DNA of 64,000 nt from an uncultured Alphaproteobacteria bacterium (GTDB taxonomy: Bacteria; Pseudomonadota; Alphaproteobacteria; Caulobacterales; Parvularculaceae), in contig CADEDN010000005.1 of NCBI GenBank assembly GCA_902826095.1, positions 1 to 64,000 on the forward strand, in the 5' to 3' direction. This document shows positions 51,895 through 64,000 of this stretch, piece by piece. Position 1 is the stretch's first letter. Each line of letters begins with the position of its first letter. The notes below the pieces were generated by a model that ran no database searches, was not told where the DNA came from, and worked only from the letters and a program-made list of their open reading frames with translations. Both the position numbers and the translations under genes were made by a program.

Positions 51895-52095
51895 GCGGCC
51901 ATCCTTCGCGACGCGCGCGTTCCGCGCGCTCCTCAGGATGAGGCTTTGGTTTTGTGAGCGGCGGTGCGAGTCGGGTCGCCTCACCCGAAGGAGCCTTGCG
52001 CCGCATGCGGCGCAAGGCGTCACGAAGGGCGCCGCCGCACTTGTCATCCCGCATCTGCGGCGCACCGCTTCGCGCTGCGCCGCGCGCGGGATGAC
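51895..52095. repeat. Repeat cluster after coaE
   Basis: Three palindromic pieces: a CATCCTTCG...CAGGATGAGG element (51899-51943), the perfect 24-bp palindrome at 51994-52017 (CCTTGCGCCGC/GCGGCGCAAGG), and a 53-bp mini family A (52043-52095, GTCATCCCGC...GCGGGATGAC). No gene is seen in 51886-52126. Confidence 0.8.
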
Positions 52096-52126
52096 AAGAC
52101 CGCGATTCTTCCGTATACAGACTATA

Positions 52127-52579
52127 TCAGAACAGCCCGAAAATCTTCCGGCGCGGCTTCAGCTTCGGCGTCGATTTCGGGTTGGCGGCGGCGAAGGCGG
52201 CGTAGTCGAAATCGCGCCGCTCGGTGCGCATTTCCGTCGATTTGAGGCCGCGGATCAGATCGCGAACGGCTTCGGGCGCGCTCGATTCCGCGGCGTCCGC
52301 CGACAACGGGGCCGGGGGCGCGGAAAAGCCGCGTCCGGCGGCGCGCGCGCGGCGCTCTTCCTTCTTGATCTGCCGCTGCTCCGCGGCGGAGAGGCGATGT
52401 TTCAGCGCGGCGAAGGCGGCGTCCGCCGGCGCGGCGAAATTCTTCGGCAGGAATTCCGCGTCATGGGCGCGAAATTCGCGCCGGTTCGGGATTTCGATAT
52501 TCTCGATCCCGCGCCCCGTCAGATTGCGCTGCGTGACCCGCTCAAACCCGCCCCAGATCTGCTTTAGCCGTTCGGCCAT
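52127..52579 (-). CDS. Hypothetical partner of the Ntn-hydrolase-like protein
   Basis: 150 residues, basic (pI clearly high), probably helical and partly disordered. It opens AERLKQIWGGFERVTQRNL, has a Lys/Arg-rich helix near residues 65-82 (SAAEQRQIKKEERRARAAG), then an Ala/Pro/Ser linker and a basic end (KPRRKIFGLF). No family recognised. It starts 9 bp after the stop of the larger gene on the same strand, so the two form an operon. Confidence 0.75.
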   Translation of the reverse strand: MAERLKQIWGGFERVTQRNLTGRGIENIEIPNRREFRAHDAEFLPKNFAAPADAAFAALKHRLSAAEQRQIKKEERRARAAGRGFSAPPAPLSADAAESSAPEAVRDLIRGLKSTEMRTERRDFDYAAFAAANPKSTPKLKPRRKIFGLF

Positions 52580-52588
52580 GACGCTCTC

Positions 52589-53869
52589 CTACAAATCCGG
52601 CTTATCGCGTTTCATCTCGAGCCCGCCATTGCGGGTGATGACGGCGACATCGATCGGCCCGCCGACGGTTTCGATCGAATGCATGACCTTCTGCTGGAAG
52701 GAATTCAGCTTGATGAGCGAGGCGGCGGTCTCGCCGAGTTCGCGCTTGGGAAGCGATCCGATCGCGCGATAGATCGGGCGCGTGTGGACGGCGTATTGAT
52801 AGGCGTCGATCGATTTGAAGAATTCCCGGAGCGCGTGGCCCATGTTGTTTTCGGAATAATCGCGGAACAGCTGCTGGCGCTGCTGGTCCGAGATCGGCGC
52901 GCGGCTGACGAGATCGGTGACGAGGTTCATCGAGAGCTTCAAGGTCTCGCCATACATGAACATTCGAAGATATTGGTCCATGCCCGTCAGAAAGGTCCGG
53001 ATCATCCGGTCCTGCGCGAAGGGCTGAACGACCGGCCCGCCGTCCGAGGTCATGTCGGCGGCGCGATCTTGTTTGCGCTTCAAAATGCCGAGAATGACGC
53101 TTGAGGTGAGGTAGGAGCGCATCGCCGGGAATTTGTCGCGCGCGCCAAAGCCCGCGAAAACGACCCCGGTGTAATGCTCGAAGAAGGCGTCGCGCGTCGC
53201 CGAAAAAACGGCGATCTCGCGAAGCCGTTCGATTGTCGCGTCCGAGACGGCGAACGCGCCGTAATCATTGCGAAGCGAGGCGACAAGGCTCTGGATCAGC
53301 TGTTCGATCTCGTTGCGGTAGCGGCGGCGCACCTGCTCGGCCATGCCGCCCGGGAAGCAGGCGAGATCGCCGCGCTGGGTGTCGTCGGGATAGCGCTGAT
53401 AGTCGGCGTGGAGCTGGCCGACGACGAATTCGAAGATCGCCGCGAGATGGTCTTTGACCCGCGCGCCGGGCGCCTGCGCGAGCTTTTGGATCTGCGCGTC
53501 GAAATCCTCGGCGATGACGGTGAAGACGACCGCCATCAGCTTGAAAAACTCCGTATCCTGATGATCAGCGGGGAAGAGGTCCGGATTGCCGGACAGGAAA
53601 TTCATGAAGTCTTCGGCGTAGTCCTGCACCGTGTCGAGCGAGCGCCCGCGCGTCTGGTCGCGGTAAAGCGAGATCACCGTCTCCCACGGCGTCGACATGA
53701 TTTCGGCGTTGTTATAGATCATCACGCCGACCGGCTGGCCCTCGACCAGCGGGAACAGCTTGTCCACCGACTGATAGGTCTTGAGGTACTGGTGGCCGGT
53801 GATCGTGACGGCGCTGTCCGCGGCCATCGCCACCGCCTGGCGGTTCATCAACACCACTTCGGAGGTCAT
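52589..53869 (-). CDS. Proteasome-like Ntn-hydrolase with long C-terminal extension
   Basis: 426 residues from ATG 53869. After Met removal the chain starts TSEVVLMNRQAVAMAADSAV, very like proteasome beta/HslV subunits, where Thr1 is the nucleophile. Thr1 and Asp17 (in AADS) fall at exactly the proteasome positions, and Lys36 in SVDKLFPL matches Lys33 with a three-residue shift. PVGVMIYNNAEIMSTPWET follows where proteasomal strands are expected. Unlike the usual 170-250 residues, a further roughly 200 mostly helical residues follow. I read this as an Ntn hydrolase, possibly a threonine protease or amidase; substrate, assembly and activity are inference. Confidence 0.7.
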   Translation of the reverse strand: MTSEVVLMNRQAVAMAADSAVTITGHQYLKTYQSVDKLFPLVEGQPVGVMIYNNAEIMSTPWETVISLYRDQTRGRSLDTVQDYAEDFMNFLSGNPDLFPADHQDTEFFKLMAVVFTVIAEDFDAQIQKLAQAPGARVKDHLAAIFEFVVGQLHADYQRYPDDTQRGDLACFPGGMAEQVRRRYRNEIEQLIQSLVASLRNDYGAFAVSDATIERLREIAVFSATRDAFFEHYTGVVFAGFGARDKFPAMRSYLTSSVILGILKRKQDRAADMTSDGGPVVQPFAQDRMIRTFLTGMDQYLRMFMYGETLKLSMNLVTDLVSRAPISDQQRQQLFRDYSENNMGHALREFFKSIDAYQYAVHTRPIYRAIGSLPKRELGETAASLIKLNSFQQKVMHSIETVGGPIDVAVITRNGGLEMKRDKPDL

Positions 53870-54189
53870 TCGCCCCTCATCCTCCCAACACCCCGACATC
53901 CGACCGGGGGCGGGAGGCCGCCGGCGGCGAACCCATCCCCGAGAGGGTCCAGCGGGCGATGTTAACGATAAAAGCCCGGCTTGGAAACGCCGCCTGTCGC
54001 CGCGGACGGCGCTTGTCGCCCCCGCGCCACAGCCCGTCCGGCTCGCCCCAAAACCCCGTCGGTTCGTCCAAAATCGCGGAAAAGTGCGGTTTTGTGTGAT
54101 GTAAATCGCGCATCCCGACCCTAATTCGGCCGTATCTGAAGGACGCCGGACGGACAAAAATAACCCCGCCGGCGGTGGGAGAGACCAAA

Positions 54190-57416: not shown

Positions 57417-57519
57417 AAAACTCCAAAAAACCGGCTTCTCTGCCGACTTCAACCCCGGACAGGCGTCAATCCCGGCTGAATCCGCCAAATCCATGTTGCG
57501 CGCGCGAAGATTTTCAAGC

Positions 57520-57690
57520 ATGCACAACGCCCCGGAAAGAGGGTTCGAATGGCTTATGGCGCAACGGCCGACAGCGCAAACGGCGCAAGACGCGGCTCTC
57601 TCGGCGCAGACCGCGGCCGCCGCCGGACCCGCGCGGATCATCGAAAATCCGCGGGCGGCCGCTTATCCCGTTGAAATCGCCGACGATTGA
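57520..57690 (+). CDS. Possible small hypothetical protein, 56 aa
   Basis: Starts MHNAPERGFEWLMAQRPTAQ and ends AYPVEIADD. Third codon positions are mostly G/C as in real genes here, but the ribosome-binding site is weak and no family is recognised. It lies in the divergent space between selO and nfeD. Confidence 0.3.
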   Translation: MHNAPERGFEWLMAQRPTAQTAQDAALSAQTAAAAGPARIIENPRAAAYPVEIADD

Positions 57691-57786
57691 GCGCGCGCGC
57701 CGAAAAGCGGCGCCGGTCGCCGATTGGCGATTGATTAGCGCCCATCGACGCCTATTTTCAGCATGAGTTCGCGAAAGGGGCGGGGC

Positions 57787-59304
57787 ATGCGTGACATCTC
57801 GGGAAAAGCGGCCAGGCTGACCCTCCTCGCCGCGATCGCCGCCTTTGGCGCCGCGCTGTTCGGGTTTGCGGCGAAGGCGCAACAGGCGGACGCCGCGCGC
57901 CAGGCGGTGATCTTGCGGATCGACGGCCCGGTCACCCCCGCCAATGCGCAATATCTCGCAAGGGAGATCGGCGAGGCGTCGGCGGCGAACAAGGAATTGA
58001 TCGTCATCGAAATCGACACGCCGGGCGGTCTTGTCGATTCGATGAAGACGATCATCAAGGCGGTGCTGGCGTCTGAAACGCCGGTCGCGACATTCGTCTC
58101 GCCGCAGGGCGCGCGATCCGCCTCCGCCGGGCTCTACATCATGTACGCCGCGCATGTCTCGGCGATGGCCCCGAACACCAATACGGGCGCCGCGACGCCG
58201 GTCGAACTTGGCGGGCCGCCGAGCGAGGAGAACCCGTTCGAGGAAAAGGGCGGGAAAGACGAAAACCCGGCCGCGCCTGAAGCCGCGCCCGAGGCCGCCC
58301 CAACAGACGCCCAGCCGGCGGACGCTCAGCCTGCGGACGAAACCGCGGCGCCCGCCGCCGCGCCCGAAGAAACCCCCCCGCTCGCCAACGCCGACGCGAT
58401 GCGCGCCAAAATCATCAATGACAGCGTCGCCTATATCCGCGCGCTCGCCGAAGAGCACGGCCGCAACGCCGACTGGGCTGAAAAGGCGGTTCGGGAAGCC
58501 GCCTCTGTGACCAGCCGCCAGGCGCTTGACCTCGGCGTCATCGACTTGATCGCGAACGATCTCGACGATCTCCTGAAGCAGATCGACGGGCGCGTCGTCA
58601 AAACCGTCGCCGGCGAGAAAACGCTGCGGACCGCAGACCTTGTTCTTGAGCGGGTCGAGCCGACCCTGATCGAGCGCATTCTCGGCTTCATCGCCGATCC
58701 CAATGTCGCGGTCATCTTGATGTCGCTGGCGACGACCGGGATCATCATCGAAATGTGGAATCCGGGATCGATCTTCCCGGGCGCGGTCGGCGTCATCTGC
58801 CTGCTTCTCGGGCTCTACGCCTTGCAGGTGCTTCCTTATAATTGGCTGCCGCTCGCCTTGATGGGCGTCGGCGCGATCTTGATCGCGGTTGAGGCCTATT
58901 CGCCGACCTTCGGGCTCGCGGGGATATCCGGGCTCGGGCTCATCGGGGTCGGCATGTATTTTCTGTTCCCGGAGGAATTTCGCGTGTCGACCTCCGTCAT
59001 CGGAATCTTGCTGGCGATGGTCGGCGCGCTGCTCGCGCTCGTGCTCGTCGCCGTCGTCGGCTCGCGCAGCCATGGGCCGATGATCGGCGGCGAAGCGATC
59101 CGCAAGCGCGAAGGGGTCGTCGACGACTGGGACGGCAAGGAGGGCTGGGTGATCGTCGAGGGCGAGCGCTGGCGCGCCCGCTCCGACCGGCCGCTGCACC
59201 CCGGCGACAAGATCAAGGTGGTCGAGATCGACGGCCTTGTCCTCATCGTCAAACAGGCCAAGGCTTCGGGCCTGCTTGAGGCGTTCGCCCCGCGTCCCGC
59301 ATGA
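57787..59304 (+). CDS. NfeD family membrane serine protease (long form)
   Basis: 505 residues from ATG 57787 with AAAGGGGCGGGG upstream. Signal peptide, then a ClpP-like protease domain (AVILRIDGPVTPANAQYL, IDTPGGLVDSMKTII, catalytic Ser in ARSASAGLYIM), an Ala/Pro/Asp-rich insert near 145-205, four to five membrane helices and a C-terminal OB-fold. Long NfeD proteins pair with SPFH proteins; archaeal homologues cleave stomatin. It leads the operon with the short NfeD and the SPFH gene. Confidence 0.93.
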   Translation: MRDISGKAARLTLLAAIAAFGAALFGFAAKAQQADAARQAVILRIDGPVTPANAQYLAREIGEASAANKELIVIEIDTPGGLVDSMKTIIKAVLASETPVATFVSPQGARSASAGLYIMYAAHVSAMAPNTNTGAATPVELGGPPSEENPFEEKGGKDENPAAPEAAPEAAPTDAQPADAQPADETAAPAAAPEETPPLANADAMRAKIINDSVAYIRALAEEHGRNADWAEKAVREAASVTSRQALDLGVIDLIANDLDDLLKQIDGRVVKTVAGEKTLRTADLVLERVEPTLIERILGFIADPNVAVILMSLATTGIIIEMWNPGSIFPGAVGVICLLLGLYALQVLPYNWLPLALMGVGAILIAVEAYSPTFGLAGISGLGLIGVGMYFLFPEEFRVSTSVIGILLAMVGALLALVLVAVVGSRSHGPMIGGEAIRKREGVVDDWDGKEGWVIVEGERWRARSDRPLHPGDKIKVVEIDGLVLIVKQAKASGLLEAFAPRPA

Positions 59305-59334
59305 GGCGTCCGCCCCGCATGAGGAAAGTTCTTT

Positions 59335-59634
59335 GTGACTGAGACCGGCGCAAATCCCTGGCTGCTGGCGGGTGTCCTTGGCGCGATCATCGCGTTCACG
59401 GCGGTCAAGCTCTTCTGGGGCGTCTCGCAATGGGCGAAAAAGCCCCAGCACCGCGTCGGCGACCGCTGGGGCGAGGAGACGGTCGAGGTGACCGAATGGG
59501 CGCAAGGCGGGAAAGGCTATGTGCTGGCCGGCGGCGAGCTTTGGAGAGCGGTCTCGAAAGACGCGCTCGCGCCCGGCGACCGCGTCTATGTCCAGAAAGT
59601 GAAGGGATTGACGCTCGAAGTCCGCAAGGGCTGA
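59335..59634 (+). CDS. Short NfeD-like protein
   Basis: 99 residues, GTG start with GAGGAAAG upstream. One membrane helix (LLAGVLGAIIAFTAVKLFW) is followed by an NfeD-type OB-fold (GETVEV-like GEETVEVTEWA and VYVQKVKGLTLEVRKG). It lies 30 bp after the long nfeD gene and before the SPFH gene. Confidence 0.82.
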   Translation: MTETGANPWLLAGVLGAIIAFTAVKLFWGVSQWAKKPQHRVGDRWGEETVEVTEWAQGGKGYVLAGGELWRAVSKDALAPGDRVYVQKVKGLTLEVRKG

Positions 59635-59685
59635 CGGCGCGGCGTTCGATCGAGGCGGAAACGCCCGCAACCAATGGAGAATGAC

Positions 59686-60441
59686 ATGCCTGATTTCGGC
59701 CTCCTCGGGATTTTGGCGTTCGTGGCGCTCTTTGTGCTGACGAACGTCGTCAAGATCCTTCGCGAATATGAGCGCGGCGTCGTCTTCACGCTCGGCCGCG
59801 TCGGCCGAACGGCGGCGGGCCCCGGCCTCGTCCTTCTCGTTCCCGGCATCCAGCAGATGCGCAAGGTCGACATGAGGACGCTCGTCCACGACGTTCCCGC
59901 GCAGGACGTGATCAGCCGCGACAACGTTTCGGTGAAGGTGAACGCGGTCATCTATTACCGCGTCGTCGATGCGGTCAGAGCCGTCGTTCAGGTCGAAAAC
60001 TACATGGCGGCGACCAGCCAGCTCGCGCAGACGACGCTGCGGTCCGTCCTCGGCAAGCATGAACTCGACGAGATGCTGCAAGAGCGCGACAAGCTCAACA
60101 AGGACATCCAGGCGATCCTCGACCATCAGACCGAAGCCTGGGGGATCAAGGTCTCGAATGTCGAAATCAAGCATGTCGACGTCGCGCCGGAAATGATCCG
60201 CGCGATCGCCAAGCAAGCGGAAGCCGAACGCGAGCGGCGCGCCAAGATCATCTCCGCCGAAGGCGAACAGCAGGCCGCCGCAAAACTCTCGGAAGCCGCG
60301 ACGATCCTTGCGACGTCCGCCGGCGCGATGGAGCTGCGCTATCTTGGCGCCCTCCAGGAAATCGCCTCCGACCGCACCAACACCATCGTCTTCCCGTTCT
60401 CGCTCGCCGATCTCGCCCGCGCGATCCGCGGGACGCACTGA
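59686..60441 (+). CDS. SPFH/band-7 (slipin, stomatin-like) protein
   Basis: 251 residues from ATG 59686, chosen because GGAGA lies six bases upstream. N-terminal membrane hairpin, then the SPFH domain: [43 protein letters not shown] and [19 protein letters not shown], with a coiled-coil end. It probably forms membrane rafts or oligomers with NfeD. Confidence 0.95.
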
Positions 60442-60621
60442 GCGCGGGATGACAGGACTTGCTGTTGAATTGGCGCAACAGGTGGTGGAAACCGGCCGCC
60501 GCCGCGCGAAATAAGGCCGAAAGTTGCGCGTTGCGCCTCGTCCGCGCGGAAGAAATCGCCTAGGCATCGTCTCAATAAAAGGAAGGCCGCCCGCCGATGG
60601 GGGGCCGATCAGGGAGGAAGT

Positions 60622-62925
60622 ATGAAGAAGCGCCTTTGGGCGAAAGCCTCGATCATTGCGTTGACGCTCGCCGCGCCGACCGTCGCCATGGCGCAAGGCG
60701 CCGCCGACGTTCTTCGCGACGAAATCCTGGTGACCGCGACGAAACAGGCGAACGCGGAGAACGTCCAGGACGTGCCGCTCGCGGTGACCGCCTATGGCGA
60801 GGACCAGCTCGACGCGCTGAAGGTCCGCGATCTTGAAAGCCTCAGCTATGCGATGCCGAACGTGTCGCTCGACGATGTCGGCACGGCGCCCGGCGTCGCC
60901 AATTTCGCGATCCGCGGCCTTGGCGTCAACTCCTCGATCCCGTCGATCGACCCGACCGTCGGCACTTTCGTCGACGGCGTTTATCTCGGCATCAACGCCG
61001 GCGTCGTGCTCGACATTTTCGACCTCGAATCGATCGAAGTCCTGCGCGGCCCACAGGGCATTTTGTTCGGCCGCAACACCACCGGCGGCGCGGTCTTGAT
61101 CAACACCAAGAAGCCCGGCGACGAATGGGAAGGCGATCTGAAGCTCGCGGCCGAAAGCGGCATGCGCGGCACCGGCATGAACTGGTACGCGATGGGCGGC
61201 GTCGGCGGCCCGCTGATTGATGACGTGCTGCGGGCGCGCGTCGCGGTCTATTACAACAAGGACGAGGGCTGGTTCAAAAACTACCTCGGCGGGCCGGTCC
61301 CGAACGCGATCGCGGGCGTTGCTTTCGGCGCGCTCGCGCCGCTGGTCGTCGGGCCCGGAACCGACGCCTTCGAGGATTTCGGCGAGGCCGAAACGCTGCT
61401 CATCCGTCCTTCCATCTACTGGACGCCGAGCGAAAGCTTTGAACTGACCTTGCGCTATGAATATGGCGATGTCGAAAGCGACGGCCCGGCCGCTCAAAAT
61501 CACACCAACGGCCTCGGCGTCACGAACGCGTTCTTTTCGGCGCCGCGCGACTCGTTCACCTTCTCGGTCAACGAGCGGGGTTTTGCGGACCAGCAATGGC
61601 ATAGCGCGAGCGCCGAAGCGCGGATCGATCTCGGCGACAGCGGCGTTTTCACCAACATCTTCGGCTGGCGCGATTATGAATCCGACACCAACAGCGACAT
61701 CGATGCGACGCCGCTGACGCTTTTCCACGCCGGCGCGACGACCGACCAGGACCAGATTTCGAACGAACTCCGGTACAACAATCGCATCTTCGACGCGGCG
61801 GATTTGACGCTCGGCTTCTACTATTTCACGCAGGACATCGCCTATAATGAGAACCGGACGATCGTCGGCGGCTTCCGCCGCTTCTTCGGCGGCGGCGTGC
61901 AGGACCAAAAGACGATCGCCGGCTTTGGCCAGATCGATGTCGATCTTTCGGACCGCTTCACGCTGAATTTCGGCGCGCGCTACACGCATGAAGAAAAAGA
62001 CGTCGTCATCTCGAACCTGCTCCTCAATTCGAATGTTCCGGCGTTCATGAATCCGTCGCCCGCCTGCGACGTCCGCATCGCGGGCGACTGCACGGAAGAC
62101 TTTGTCAGCAGCGACAGCTGGAACAATTTCACGCCGAAGGCCGGCTTCGAGTGGCGGGTCGTCGACTTCATGAATCTCTACGCCCACTGGACGCAGGGCG
62201 TGCGCTCCGGCGGCTACAATTTCCGCAACACGTCGCTGGCGTTCGCGCCGGGCCCGTTCGACGAGGAAAAAGTCAACGCCTACGAACTCGGCTTCAAGGT
62301 GCAGCCGGGCGACGGCAAGGCGACGATCAACGCCGCGTTCTTCGTCAACGACGTCAGCGACATGCAGCGCGAGATCAATCTCGCCGATCCGCTCGCCGGC
62401 GTCGTGCAGGTCATCCGCAACACCGCGGACGCGACGATCTGGGGCGTCGAAATTGAAGCGCAGATCGCCTTCACCGACCACTTCGTCGTGCTCGGCAATG
62501 TCGGCCACACCGAAGGCAATTACGACTCGGTGCTGTTCGACATTTCGAGCGACGGCGTCATCAACGACGCGGATCTGCGCCTCGATATTCCGCGCCTTGC
62601 GCCATGGACCTATGGAATCGGCTTCGTCCATACGCTGCCGCTTTCGGACAGCGTCAATGTCGACACCAGGTTCAACTATTCGCACCGGGATCGCGCGTTC
62701 TACACCGATAACAATCTCGGCTTCCTCAACGAGGTCGATCTGATCGACGCCGCGATCGCGCTGAATTTCGGTTCGGCGATCCTCTCGGTCTACGGCAAGA
62801 ACCTCACCAACGAAGTGAACTTCGGCGGCGACACCCAGCTGCCGGTCGCCAATATCGGCGGCGGCACGTTCTCGCCGCTGCAAAAAGGCAGGCGCGTCGG
62901 CGTCGAACTGCAGGTCGGCTTCTAG
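60622..62925 (+). CDS. TonB-dependent receptor
   Basis: 767 residues with signal peptide (ending AMA) and ribosome-binding site GGGAGGAAG. TonB box-like DEILVTATKQ near residue 33, plug domain (LPLAVTAYGEDQLDALKVRD, VEVLRGPQGILFGRNTTGGA), then a 22-strand-type barrel ending LQKGRRVGVELQVGF with terminal Phe. No siderophore or sugar genes adjoin it, so the substrate is unknown. A strong terminator follows. Confidence 0.95.
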   Translation: MKKRLWAKASIIALTLAAPTVAMAQGAADVLRDEILVTATKQANAENVQDVPLAVTAYGEDQLDALKVRDLESLSYAMPNVSLDDVGTAPGVANFAIRGLGVNSSIPSIDPTVGTFVDGVYLGINAGVVLDIFDLESIEVLRGPQGILFGRNTTGGAVLINTKKPGDEWEGDLKLAAESGMRGTGMNWYAMGGVGGPLIDDVLRARVAVYYNKDEGWFKNYLGGPVPNAIAGVAFGALAPLVVGPGTDAFEDFGEAETLLIRPSIYWTPSESFELTLRYEYGDVESDGPAAQNHTNGLGVTNAFFSAPRDSFTFSVNERGFADQQWHSASAEARIDLGDSGVFTNIFGWRDYESDTNSDIDATPLTLFHAGATTDQDQISNELRYNNRIFDAADLTLGFYYFTQDIAYNENRTIVGGFRRFFGGGVQDQKTIAGFGQIDVDLSDRFTLNFGARYTHEEKDVVISNLLLNSNVPAFMNPSPACDVRIAGDCTEDFVSSDSWNNFTPKAGFEWRVVDFMNLYAHWTQGVRSGGYNFRNTSLAFAPGPFDEEKVNAYELGFKVQPGDGKATINAAFFVNDVSDMQREINLADPLAGVVQVIRNTADATIWGVEIEAQIAFTDHFVVLGNVGHTEGNYDSVLFDISSDGVINDADLRLDIPRLAPWTYGIGFVHTLPLSDSVNVDTRFNYSHRDRAFYTDNNLGFLNEVDLIDAAIALNFGSAILSVYGKNLTNEVNFGGDTQLPVANIGGGTFSPLQKGRRVGVELQVGF

Positions 62926-62949
62926 GCCGGACCTCGCCGCAAGGATCGA

Positions 62950-62978
62950 GCCCCCGCTTCGGCGGGGGCTTTTCTTTT
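62950..62978 (+). terminator. Rho-independent terminator
   Basis: GCCCCCGC-TTCG-GCGGGGGC followed by TTTTCTTTT, a perfect 8-bp stem with a UUCG tetraloop. Confidence 0.95.
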
Positions 62979-63004
62979 GGCGGGCGGGGTCCGAAAAGCC
63001 GGCG

Positions 63005-63241
63005 ATGGCGCAAGACCAGATGCTTGATGCGACCGGGCTTTCCTGCCCTTTGCCGGTGATCCGGATGGAGGCGATGCTGCGCCGGCTCGCCCCCGGGGAC
63101 CGGCTCCTTGTGATCGCCGACGATCCGGTCGCCGCGGTCGATATTCCGCATTTCGCGGCGGAAGGCGGCCATGGCTGCGCGCGGCGGGAGGGCCCGCCGG
63201 GGACTTGCGTCTTTCTGGTCACGCGCGGCGAAAAACCGTGA
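63005..63241 (+). CDS. TusA-family sulfur carrier protein
   Basis: 78 residues with the conserved cysteine in DATGLSCPLPVIR. The family passes persulfide sulfur for tRNA thiolation and cofactor assembly. It stands alone after the TonB receptor. Confidence 0.92.
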   Translation: MAQDQMLDATGLSCPLPVIRMEAMLRRLAPGDRLLVIADDPVAAVDIPHFAAEGGHGCARREGPPGTCVFLVTRGEKP

Positions 63242-63459
63242 CTGGGCGGGGTTGACGGCTTGCCGCCGGCCGCCGGCCAGTCGCCAAATTGTCTTTGGCC
63301 ATGGTAAAGGTTAATGTGGCGCAAGAGGCCCGTGCGTGGTCTATTCAAGTCGGAAGGCGGCCCCGGCGGCCGGGTCCGGCCTGCTGGAGCAAGCGTTCGG
63401 GGGAGGAACGCCCGGTCAGTCAAGCGCGGTTGCGCCAAGGGTTGGGGAGTCGAGGGGTT

Positions 63460-64000
63460 ATGAGGAAATTCAAGCTTATGCACAAATCCGGACTGCGCCG
63501 GGCGCTTGTCAGCGTCGCGGCGGCCTCCGCCCTTGCGCTTGGCGCGAGCGGCGTCGCGCACGCCAATTACGATATCGGCCTTAAGGCCTATGAGCAGGGC
63601 CAGTATGATGTCGCGGTCGACATCTGGGCGCGCTTTTCCGTCGCCGGCGACGTCCGGTCGATGAAAGCGCTCGGCGACGTTTATTCCGGCGCCGTCCTTG
63701 AAGGGTCGAAAGGCGCGAAGATCCCGCTGGAGACCGGCCGCAAGATCAACAATGTCGAATCGCTGCGCTGGTACACGCTCGCCGCCTATCACCGCTTCAA
63801 TGAAGGCTTCCAGATGCCGTCGGCGGAAGAGCGCAATGCGCAGATCCTCGCCGAAGAGCGGCTCCCCGAAATCCGTTTCCGCATGAGCACCGCGGAAGTG
63901 ACGAAGGCGCAAAAGCTCGTCTCCGACACGTTCGAGCGCGGCAGCCCCTATGATCTCTACACGCTCGGCGACATGTACCGGCGCGGCACCGGCGTCGACA
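63460..64000 (+). CDS. Exported Sel1/TPR-like protein, truncated by window end
   Basis: 180 codons are visible from ATG 63460, which follows GAGGGG closely; the gene runs off the window. Signal peptide (ending GVAHA) precedes Sel1-type repeats: GLKAYEQGQYDVAVDIWARF and MKALGDVYSG. Such proteins mediate protein contacts in the periplasm; no specific role can be given. A second ATG at 63478 is possible. Confidence 0.8.
   Translation, partial: MRKFKLMHKSGLRRALVSVAAASALALGASGVAHANYDIGLKAYEQGQYDVAVDIWARFSVAGDVRSMKALGDVYSGAVLEGSKGAKIPLETGRKINNVESLRWYTLAAYHRFNEGFQMPSAEERNAQILAEERLPEIRFRMSTAEVTKAQKLVSDTFERGSPYDLYTLGDMYRRGTGVD

What the first reader, a model, noticed from the sequence alone, without database searches (positions are those of the whole stretch)
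52127..53869. Two-gene cassette with a proteasome-like Ntn hydrolase carrying a 200-residue extension
After Met1 the larger product begins with Thr, has Asp at position 17 in the phrase AADS and Lys36 in SVDKLFPL. Those are the Thr1/Asp17/Lys33 catalytic positions of proteasome beta and HslV subunits (established knowledge), with a three-residue shift for the Lys. Its 426 residues are about twice the family norm; the extra part is mostly helical. A small basic protein is encoded 9 bp downstream. I do not recognise the pair as HslUV, Anbu, BPH or the actinobacterial proteasome, and no AAA+ unfoldase is near. It could be an undescribed self-compartmentalised or stand-alone threonine hydrolase with a dedicated partner.
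Basis: partly seen in the sequence, partly recalled or inferred. Interest (0 to 1): 0.85.

Follow-up and report, generated by a model that had tools for sequence, protein, structure and literature searches.

The report
Proteasome-like enzyme with small partner
A bacterial gene pair encodes a free-standing relative of the proteasome's cutting subunit plus a small basic protein that sits beside it in bacteria, an archaeon and phages; the enzyme family was catalogued in 2021 but I found no earlier report of the partner, and neither protein has a known function.

Summary
Window 53869-52589 (-) encodes a 426-aa protein starting MT; a 150-aa basic protein (pI 10.7) starts 9 bp downstream. The enzyme is a proteasome-like N-terminal-Thr hydrolase. 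In 213 aligned homologues (86 clusters at 70% identity) residue 2 is Thr in 212 (Ser in one), and Asp18 and Lys37 (proteasome Asp17/Lys33) never vary. An AlphaFold2 model finds only 20S proteasome and Anbu subunits among its 50 best PDB matches. The "200-residue extension" is two internal helical insertions (about 101-225 and 299-372). Their positions, and the taxonomic spread including phages, fit PMI-4, one of 22 uncharacterised families listed by Fuchs, Alva and Lupas (2021), so the enzyme type is not undescribed. What appears new is the partner: that paper found no genomic context, yet a small downstream ORF follows the enzyme in 74 of 83 clusters (background 143/288, p = 9e-12), and partner profiles hit only the place behind the enzyme. 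In Parvularculaceae, the window's family, the pair is near-universal and vertical; elsewhere it is patchy, often on prophages, Streptococcus satellites or plasmids. Most likely: a stand-alone threonine peptidase with a dedicated small regulator or targeting subunit. Activity, binding and oligomeric state are untested.

The parts
52589..53869 (-). Proteasome-like N-terminal-threonine hydrolase, 426 aa (PMI-4-like)
53864..53869 (-). Start codon and Thr2 codon (ATGACC); Thr2 becomes the N-terminal nucleophile after Met removal (inferred)
   Evidence: sequence; residue 2 is Thr in 212/213 homologues, Ser in one
53816..53818 (-). Asp18 codon (proteasome Asp17)
   Evidence: Asp in 213/213 homologues
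53759..53761 (-). Lys37 codon (proteasome Lys33)
   Evidence: Lys in 213/213 homologues
53195..53569 (-). First helical insertion, residues ~101-225 (after H1/H2)
   Evidence: AlphaFold2 secondary structure
52754..52975 (-). Second helical insertion, residues ~299-372 (between H3 and H4)
   Evidence: AlphaFold2 secondary structure
52127..52579 (-). Partner: basic 150-aa protein; conserved N-terminal RLKxIWxGF helix, LTGxGV block, FLP motif, DYxxF motif, basic C-terminus ending (K/R)KxFG(L/I)F

Best explanation
The cassette makes a stand-alone peptidase of the proteasome-like Ntn superfamily, most likely family PMI-4. Met aminopeptidase removes Met1 and exposes Thr2, which acts as nucleophile, with Asp18 and Lys37 completing the site. 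No propeptide is visible and no unfoldase gene is linked. The two helical insertions would replace or block ring contacts and restrict access to the active site. The small partner, encoded just downstream and strictly linked to the enzyme, binds it as its dedicated regulator or targeting subunit, through short conserved segments in an otherwise disordered chain. Shown here: the genes, active-site conservation, predicted fold, linkage and purifying selection. Inferred: proteolytic activity, Met removal, partner binding and its regulatory role.
For: Thr2 in 212/213 (Ser in one), Asp18 and Lys37 in 213/213. The 50 best Foldseek matches in the PDB are all 20S proteasome or Anbu chains, probability 0.97-1.00, best E 2e-4. 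Strand/helix order matches the proteasome beta fold plus two insertions at the sites described for PMI-4. Partner: found in 57/60 Parvularculaceae genomes, one copy each, and its profile hits only the slot behind the enzyme among 30,190 six-frame ORFs. Over the whole family a small downstream ORF follows in 74/83 clusters against 143/288 for other long ORFs, Fisher p 9e-12; AT-rich subset 35/39 vs 42/99, p 2e-7. Leave-one-out profiles of the short partner type pick the downstream ORF as top hit in 13 of 15 loci from several bacterial phyla, a euryarchaeote and viral contigs. In a single-chain model of enzyme plus partner (stop read through), one otherwise disordered partner segment, residues 121-140 with the DYxxF motif, rises to pLDDT ~70.
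Against: No activity data. TM-scores to proteasome subunits are modest (0.33-0.51 by target length). Sequence searches find no proteasome in Pfam or the PDB. Partner types of distant groups are not demonstrably homologous to each other (profile-profile P 0.0085-0.86), so the partner's role may differ between groups. The fused-chain signal is weak and was read without coordinates or a partner-alone control.
Confidence: 0.6

Rival explanations
1. The partner is the enzyme's substrate: the peptidase cleaves it, releasing a short effector such as the basic amphipathic C-terminus.
For: Partner is small, largely disordered, faster evolving than the enzyme and has a conserved basic-aromatic C-terminus in the Parvularculaceae and the second alphaproteobacterial type.
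Against: No cleavage-site pattern is shared across partner types; short partners (50-75 aa) in other phyla lack that C-terminus.
Confidence: 0.2
2. A mobile anti-phage or superinfection-exclusion module: protease effector plus small inhibitor or sensor.
For: Relatives in 13 phage records including Streptococcus satellites, several at an element end, 95 IMG/VR stretches, plasmids; patchy outside Parvularculaceae.
Against: No PADLOC match; neighbours in cellular loci are mostly unrelated genes with no defence-island signal; near-universal and vertical in Parvularculaceae, unlike a defence gene.
Confidence: 0.25
3. Connectase-like: the enzyme is a specific peptide ligase or transferase and the partner carries or delivers the recognised sequence.
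For: The superfamily includes connectase, a monomeric ligase with a helical insertion (PMC8665760); the insertions here may gate the site.
Against: Insertions are at different sites from connectase's (S3/S4); H1/H2, absent in connectase, are predicted here; no conserved recognition peptide found.
Confidence: 0.08
4. The small ORF is an unrelated neighbour or a random overlapping ORF.
For: GC-rich genomes give many random ORFs (control 101/189 in GC-rich loci).
Against: AT-rich loci 35/39 vs 42/99; leave-one-out recovery; purifying selection.
Confidence: 0.03

Closest known systems
PMI-4, 'Proteasome homolog with Multiple Insertions' (Fuchs, Alva, Lupas 2021, PMC8665760)
   Same: Thr1/Asp17/Lys33 site; insertions after H1/H2 and between H3/H4; broad bacterial range plus Euryarchaeota and phages; no AAA+ neighbour.
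   Different: The paper reports no genomic context; here a small partner gene is strictly linked. The window's Parvularculaceae clade has a long 150-aa partner and vertical inheritance. Direct comparison with the paper's own sequences was not possible.
HslV (HslUV)
   Same: N-terminal Thr, Asp17, Lys33; Ntn fold.
   Different: The genome has a separate PF00227 protein; this one is twice as long, not matched by Pfam Proteasome, and has no HslU beside it.
Anbu
   Same: Anbu chains among the Foldseek top 50; no unfoldase known.
   Different: Anbu's extra element is a C-terminal helix; here two internal insertions; no sequence match.
Connectase
   Same: Proteasome-like enzyme with helical insertion.
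   Different: Insertion site differs; not among the top structural hits.
PHROG phrog_5990 (unknown function)
   Same: P0001 matches full length, E 9.7e-75.
   Different: Only a phage protein cluster with no assigned function.

Membership tests
Proteasome-like Ntn hydrolases | Thr/Ser nucleophile at the mature N-terminus plus Asp17 and Lys33 | tested here: met
   residues conserved: 212/213 Thr + 1 Ser; 213/213 Asp and Lys; Met removal itself not tested
Proteasome-like Ntn hydrolases | Four-layer alpha-beta-beta-alpha fold | tested here: met
   predicted model only; top 50 PDB matches all proteasome/Anbu, though TM-scores are modest
Proteasome-like Ntn hydrolases | Thr-dependent hydrolysis | not testable with these tools
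   needs biochemistry
PMI-4 | Long insertion after H1/H2 | tested here: met
   helices ~101-225; criterion
PMI-4 | Insertion between H3 and H4 | tested here: met
   helices ~299-372; criterion
PMI-4 | Taxonomic range: most bacterial phyla, Euryarchaeota, phages | tested here: met
PMI-4 | Sequence clustering with the published PMI-4 set | not testable with these tools
   HDY66466.1 and the Mendeley set are not held; PMI-3 shares both insertions but has few members and no phages
HslV | Match to Pfam Proteasome / HslV models and neighbouring hslU | tested here: not met
   a separate PF00227 match lies at C5:145865
20S proteasome beta | Cleaved propeptide and a partner alpha subunit | tested here: not met
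   conservation starts at Met1-Thr2; only one PF00227 gene in the genome
Anbu | C-terminal coiled-coil helix H5, about 240 aa | tested here: not met
   426 aa, ends in beta strands
Known anti-phage defence system | Match to a catalogued defence family | tested here: not met
   no PADLOC match at E<=1

The most novel reading that the evidence does not exclude
An ancient, mobile two-gene module in which a monomeric or unusually assembled proteasome-like threonine peptidase is controlled by a tiny dedicated protein instead of an AAA+ unfoldase; phages and satellites use it as cargo in phage-host conflict, and Parvularculaceae have made it a core cellular gene pair.
Probability: 0.3. Interest if true: 0.8.

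Novelty: new variant of a known kind. Interest (0 to 1): 0.6.

Why it matters
The 2021 survey left PMI proteins with no functional clue. A strictly linked partner gives a handle: it can be co-expressed, co-purified, deleted and used as bait. It also makes testable how a proteasome-type active site is controlled without a ring gate or ATPase. Parvularculaceae isolates (Aquisalinus, Parvularcula, Marinicaulis, Amphiplicatus) offer culturable hosts where the pair is core.

Tried and rejected
Pfam, NCBIfam and PDB sequence searches gave nothing meaningful for either protein. Profile-profile tests did not join the partner types of Parvularculaceae, other Alphaproteobacteria and the short type, so I do not claim one partner family. 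A general [FY]-x-P motif is only mildly enriched over shuffles (18 vs 9.7 +/- 2.7) and is not used as proof. PADLOC matches of neighbours were few and mostly from generic families. The longer reading frame upstream of Met1 (TTG at 54157) was rejected because conservation starts at Met1 and a GAGGGG ribosome-binding site precedes it. A synteny check found nfeD and/or selO next to the pair in 27 of 45 loci, but flanks were at most 8 kb. Literature searches for a function of PMI-4 or its phage relatives found none; only open-licence papers were searchable.

Full report
What is there. The minus strand of the window encodes, at 53869-52589, a 426-residue protein beginning MTSEVVLMNRQAVAMAADSAVT, and 9 bp behind its TAG stop a 150-residue basic protein at 52579-52127. 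The window lies in a genome of the alphaproteobacterial family Parvularculaceae, judging by the named closest relatives. The enzyme gene is in 35 of 37 genomes of that family searched with it, at 65-96% identity; of the two misses, one has the partner at a contig edge and the other is 66% complete. A scan with the partner found it in 57 of 60 family genomes, one copy each. Both genes are under purifying selection.

The active site. In an alignment of 213 homologues (redundant; 86 clusters at 70% identity), residue 2 is Thr in 212 and Ser in one; Asp18, Ser19 and Lys37 are invariant, as are Gly235 and Gly240. Relatives only 23-31% identical keep this set. Removal of Met1 before Thr is general knowledge of Met aminopeptidase, not tested here.

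The fold. AlphaFold2 with 19 relatives gave mean pLDDT 81 and pTM 0.76. The element order is strands 4-52, helices 62-73 and 81-92, a long helical block 101-225, strands 234-283, helix 287-295, a helical block 299-372, helix 375-387, and closing strands 406-421. Foldseek against the PDB returned only 20S proteasome and Anbu subunits in the 50 rows shown (best E 2e-4, probability 1.00). TM-scores are modest, so the topology is supported but not the exact packing.

What it is called. Fuchs, Alva and Lupas (2021, PMC8665760) described 22 new proteasome-like families. PMI-3 and PMI-4 carry insertions both after H1/H2 and between H3/H4; PMI-4 is the large one, in most bacterial phyla, Euryarchaeota and phages. 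The family found here has both insertions and that range. I therefore file it as PMI-4-like; the published sequences could not be compared directly. The genome's Pfam Proteasome match, presumably HslV, is a different gene about 92 kb away on the same contig, and the genome has only one PMI-type gene.

The partner. The survey paper states that no genomic context or co-occurrence was found. Here the gene behind the enzyme is not random. After collapsing enzymes to 70% clusters, 74 of 83 have an ORF of 45-230 codons starting between 35 bp before and 60 bp after the stop; the same test on other long ORFs in the same loci gives 143 of 288 (p 9e-12), and in AT-rich loci 35/39 against 42/99 (p 2e-7). 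In annotated phages and plasmids the small gene is often annotated too: Javan103, Providencia phage, Porphyromonas phage, an Enterococcus plasmid. Partners fall into several sequence types: Parvularculaceae (A), other Alphaproteobacteria (B), an intermediate clade (C), a short type in many phyla and a euryarchaeote (S), and several prophage types. Profiles of the types tested (A, B, S and four prophage types) hit only places behind the enzyme among 30,190 six-frame ORFs; the three hits my position rule did not flag (L170, L043, L046) also appear, from their coordinates, to lie just downstream of the enzyme gene. Leave-one-out tests of the S type rank the right ORF first in 13 of 15 loci. The types are not provably homologous to one another.

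How it may work. I commit to a stand-alone threonine peptidase whose partner is a dedicated regulator or targeting subunit. The partner is predicted mostly disordered; in a read-through single chain (enzyme-QESV-partner, possible because the two genes happen to be in frame) only partner residues 121-140, with the conserved DYxxF, reach pLDDT about 70. That is weak evidence of docking. No AAA+ gene lies beside the pair in the window, and neighbours in 21 non-Parvularculaceae loci are mostly unrelated to each other.

Two lifestyles. In Parvularculaceae the pair is vertical, with selO and/or nfeD beside it in 27 of 45 loci checked. In a sample of 399 genomes of the phylum only eight outside the family carry a relative, while relatives occur in 13 phage records, 10 plasmids and at least 80 viral contigs, several at element ends or beside lysis genes. 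This suggests cargo of mobile elements, but no defence signature was found.

Verdict. Observation confirmed; interpretation right on fold and partner, wrong on being undescribed. Interest rests on the partner rather than on the enzyme.

Noticed in passing
L133:2733-7437 (Mesorhizobium plasmid NZ_AP023255.1): A relative of the enzyme lies about 1.2 kb from divergent genes for a ThiF-type adenylyltransferase and a multiubiquitin-domain protein: a possible bacterial ubiquitin-like system beside a proteasome homologue. One instance only.
   Followed up: no
L023:4178-5527 (G034:C15): A second, divergent copy (about 27% identity) in a Parvularculaceae genome, followed by a transposase-like ORF; suggests horizontal gain beside the core copy.
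   Followed up: no
window 52040-52100: Inverted repeat (TTGTCATCCCGC...GCGGGATGACAA) just after the partner gene; possible terminator or dispersed intergenic repeat.
   Followed up: no
window 57514-63912: Very long minus-strand ORF (2132 codons) antisense to nfeD/stomatin-type genes; looks like a GC-rich frame artefact, not a gene.
   Followed up: no
L130:4001-5251, L134:6001-7302: Relatives in Stenotrophomonas phage BUCT708 and a Pantoea plasmid have no annotated small gene behind them; L130 has an unannotated 46-codon ORF, L134 none found. Possible partner loss.
   Followed up: partly
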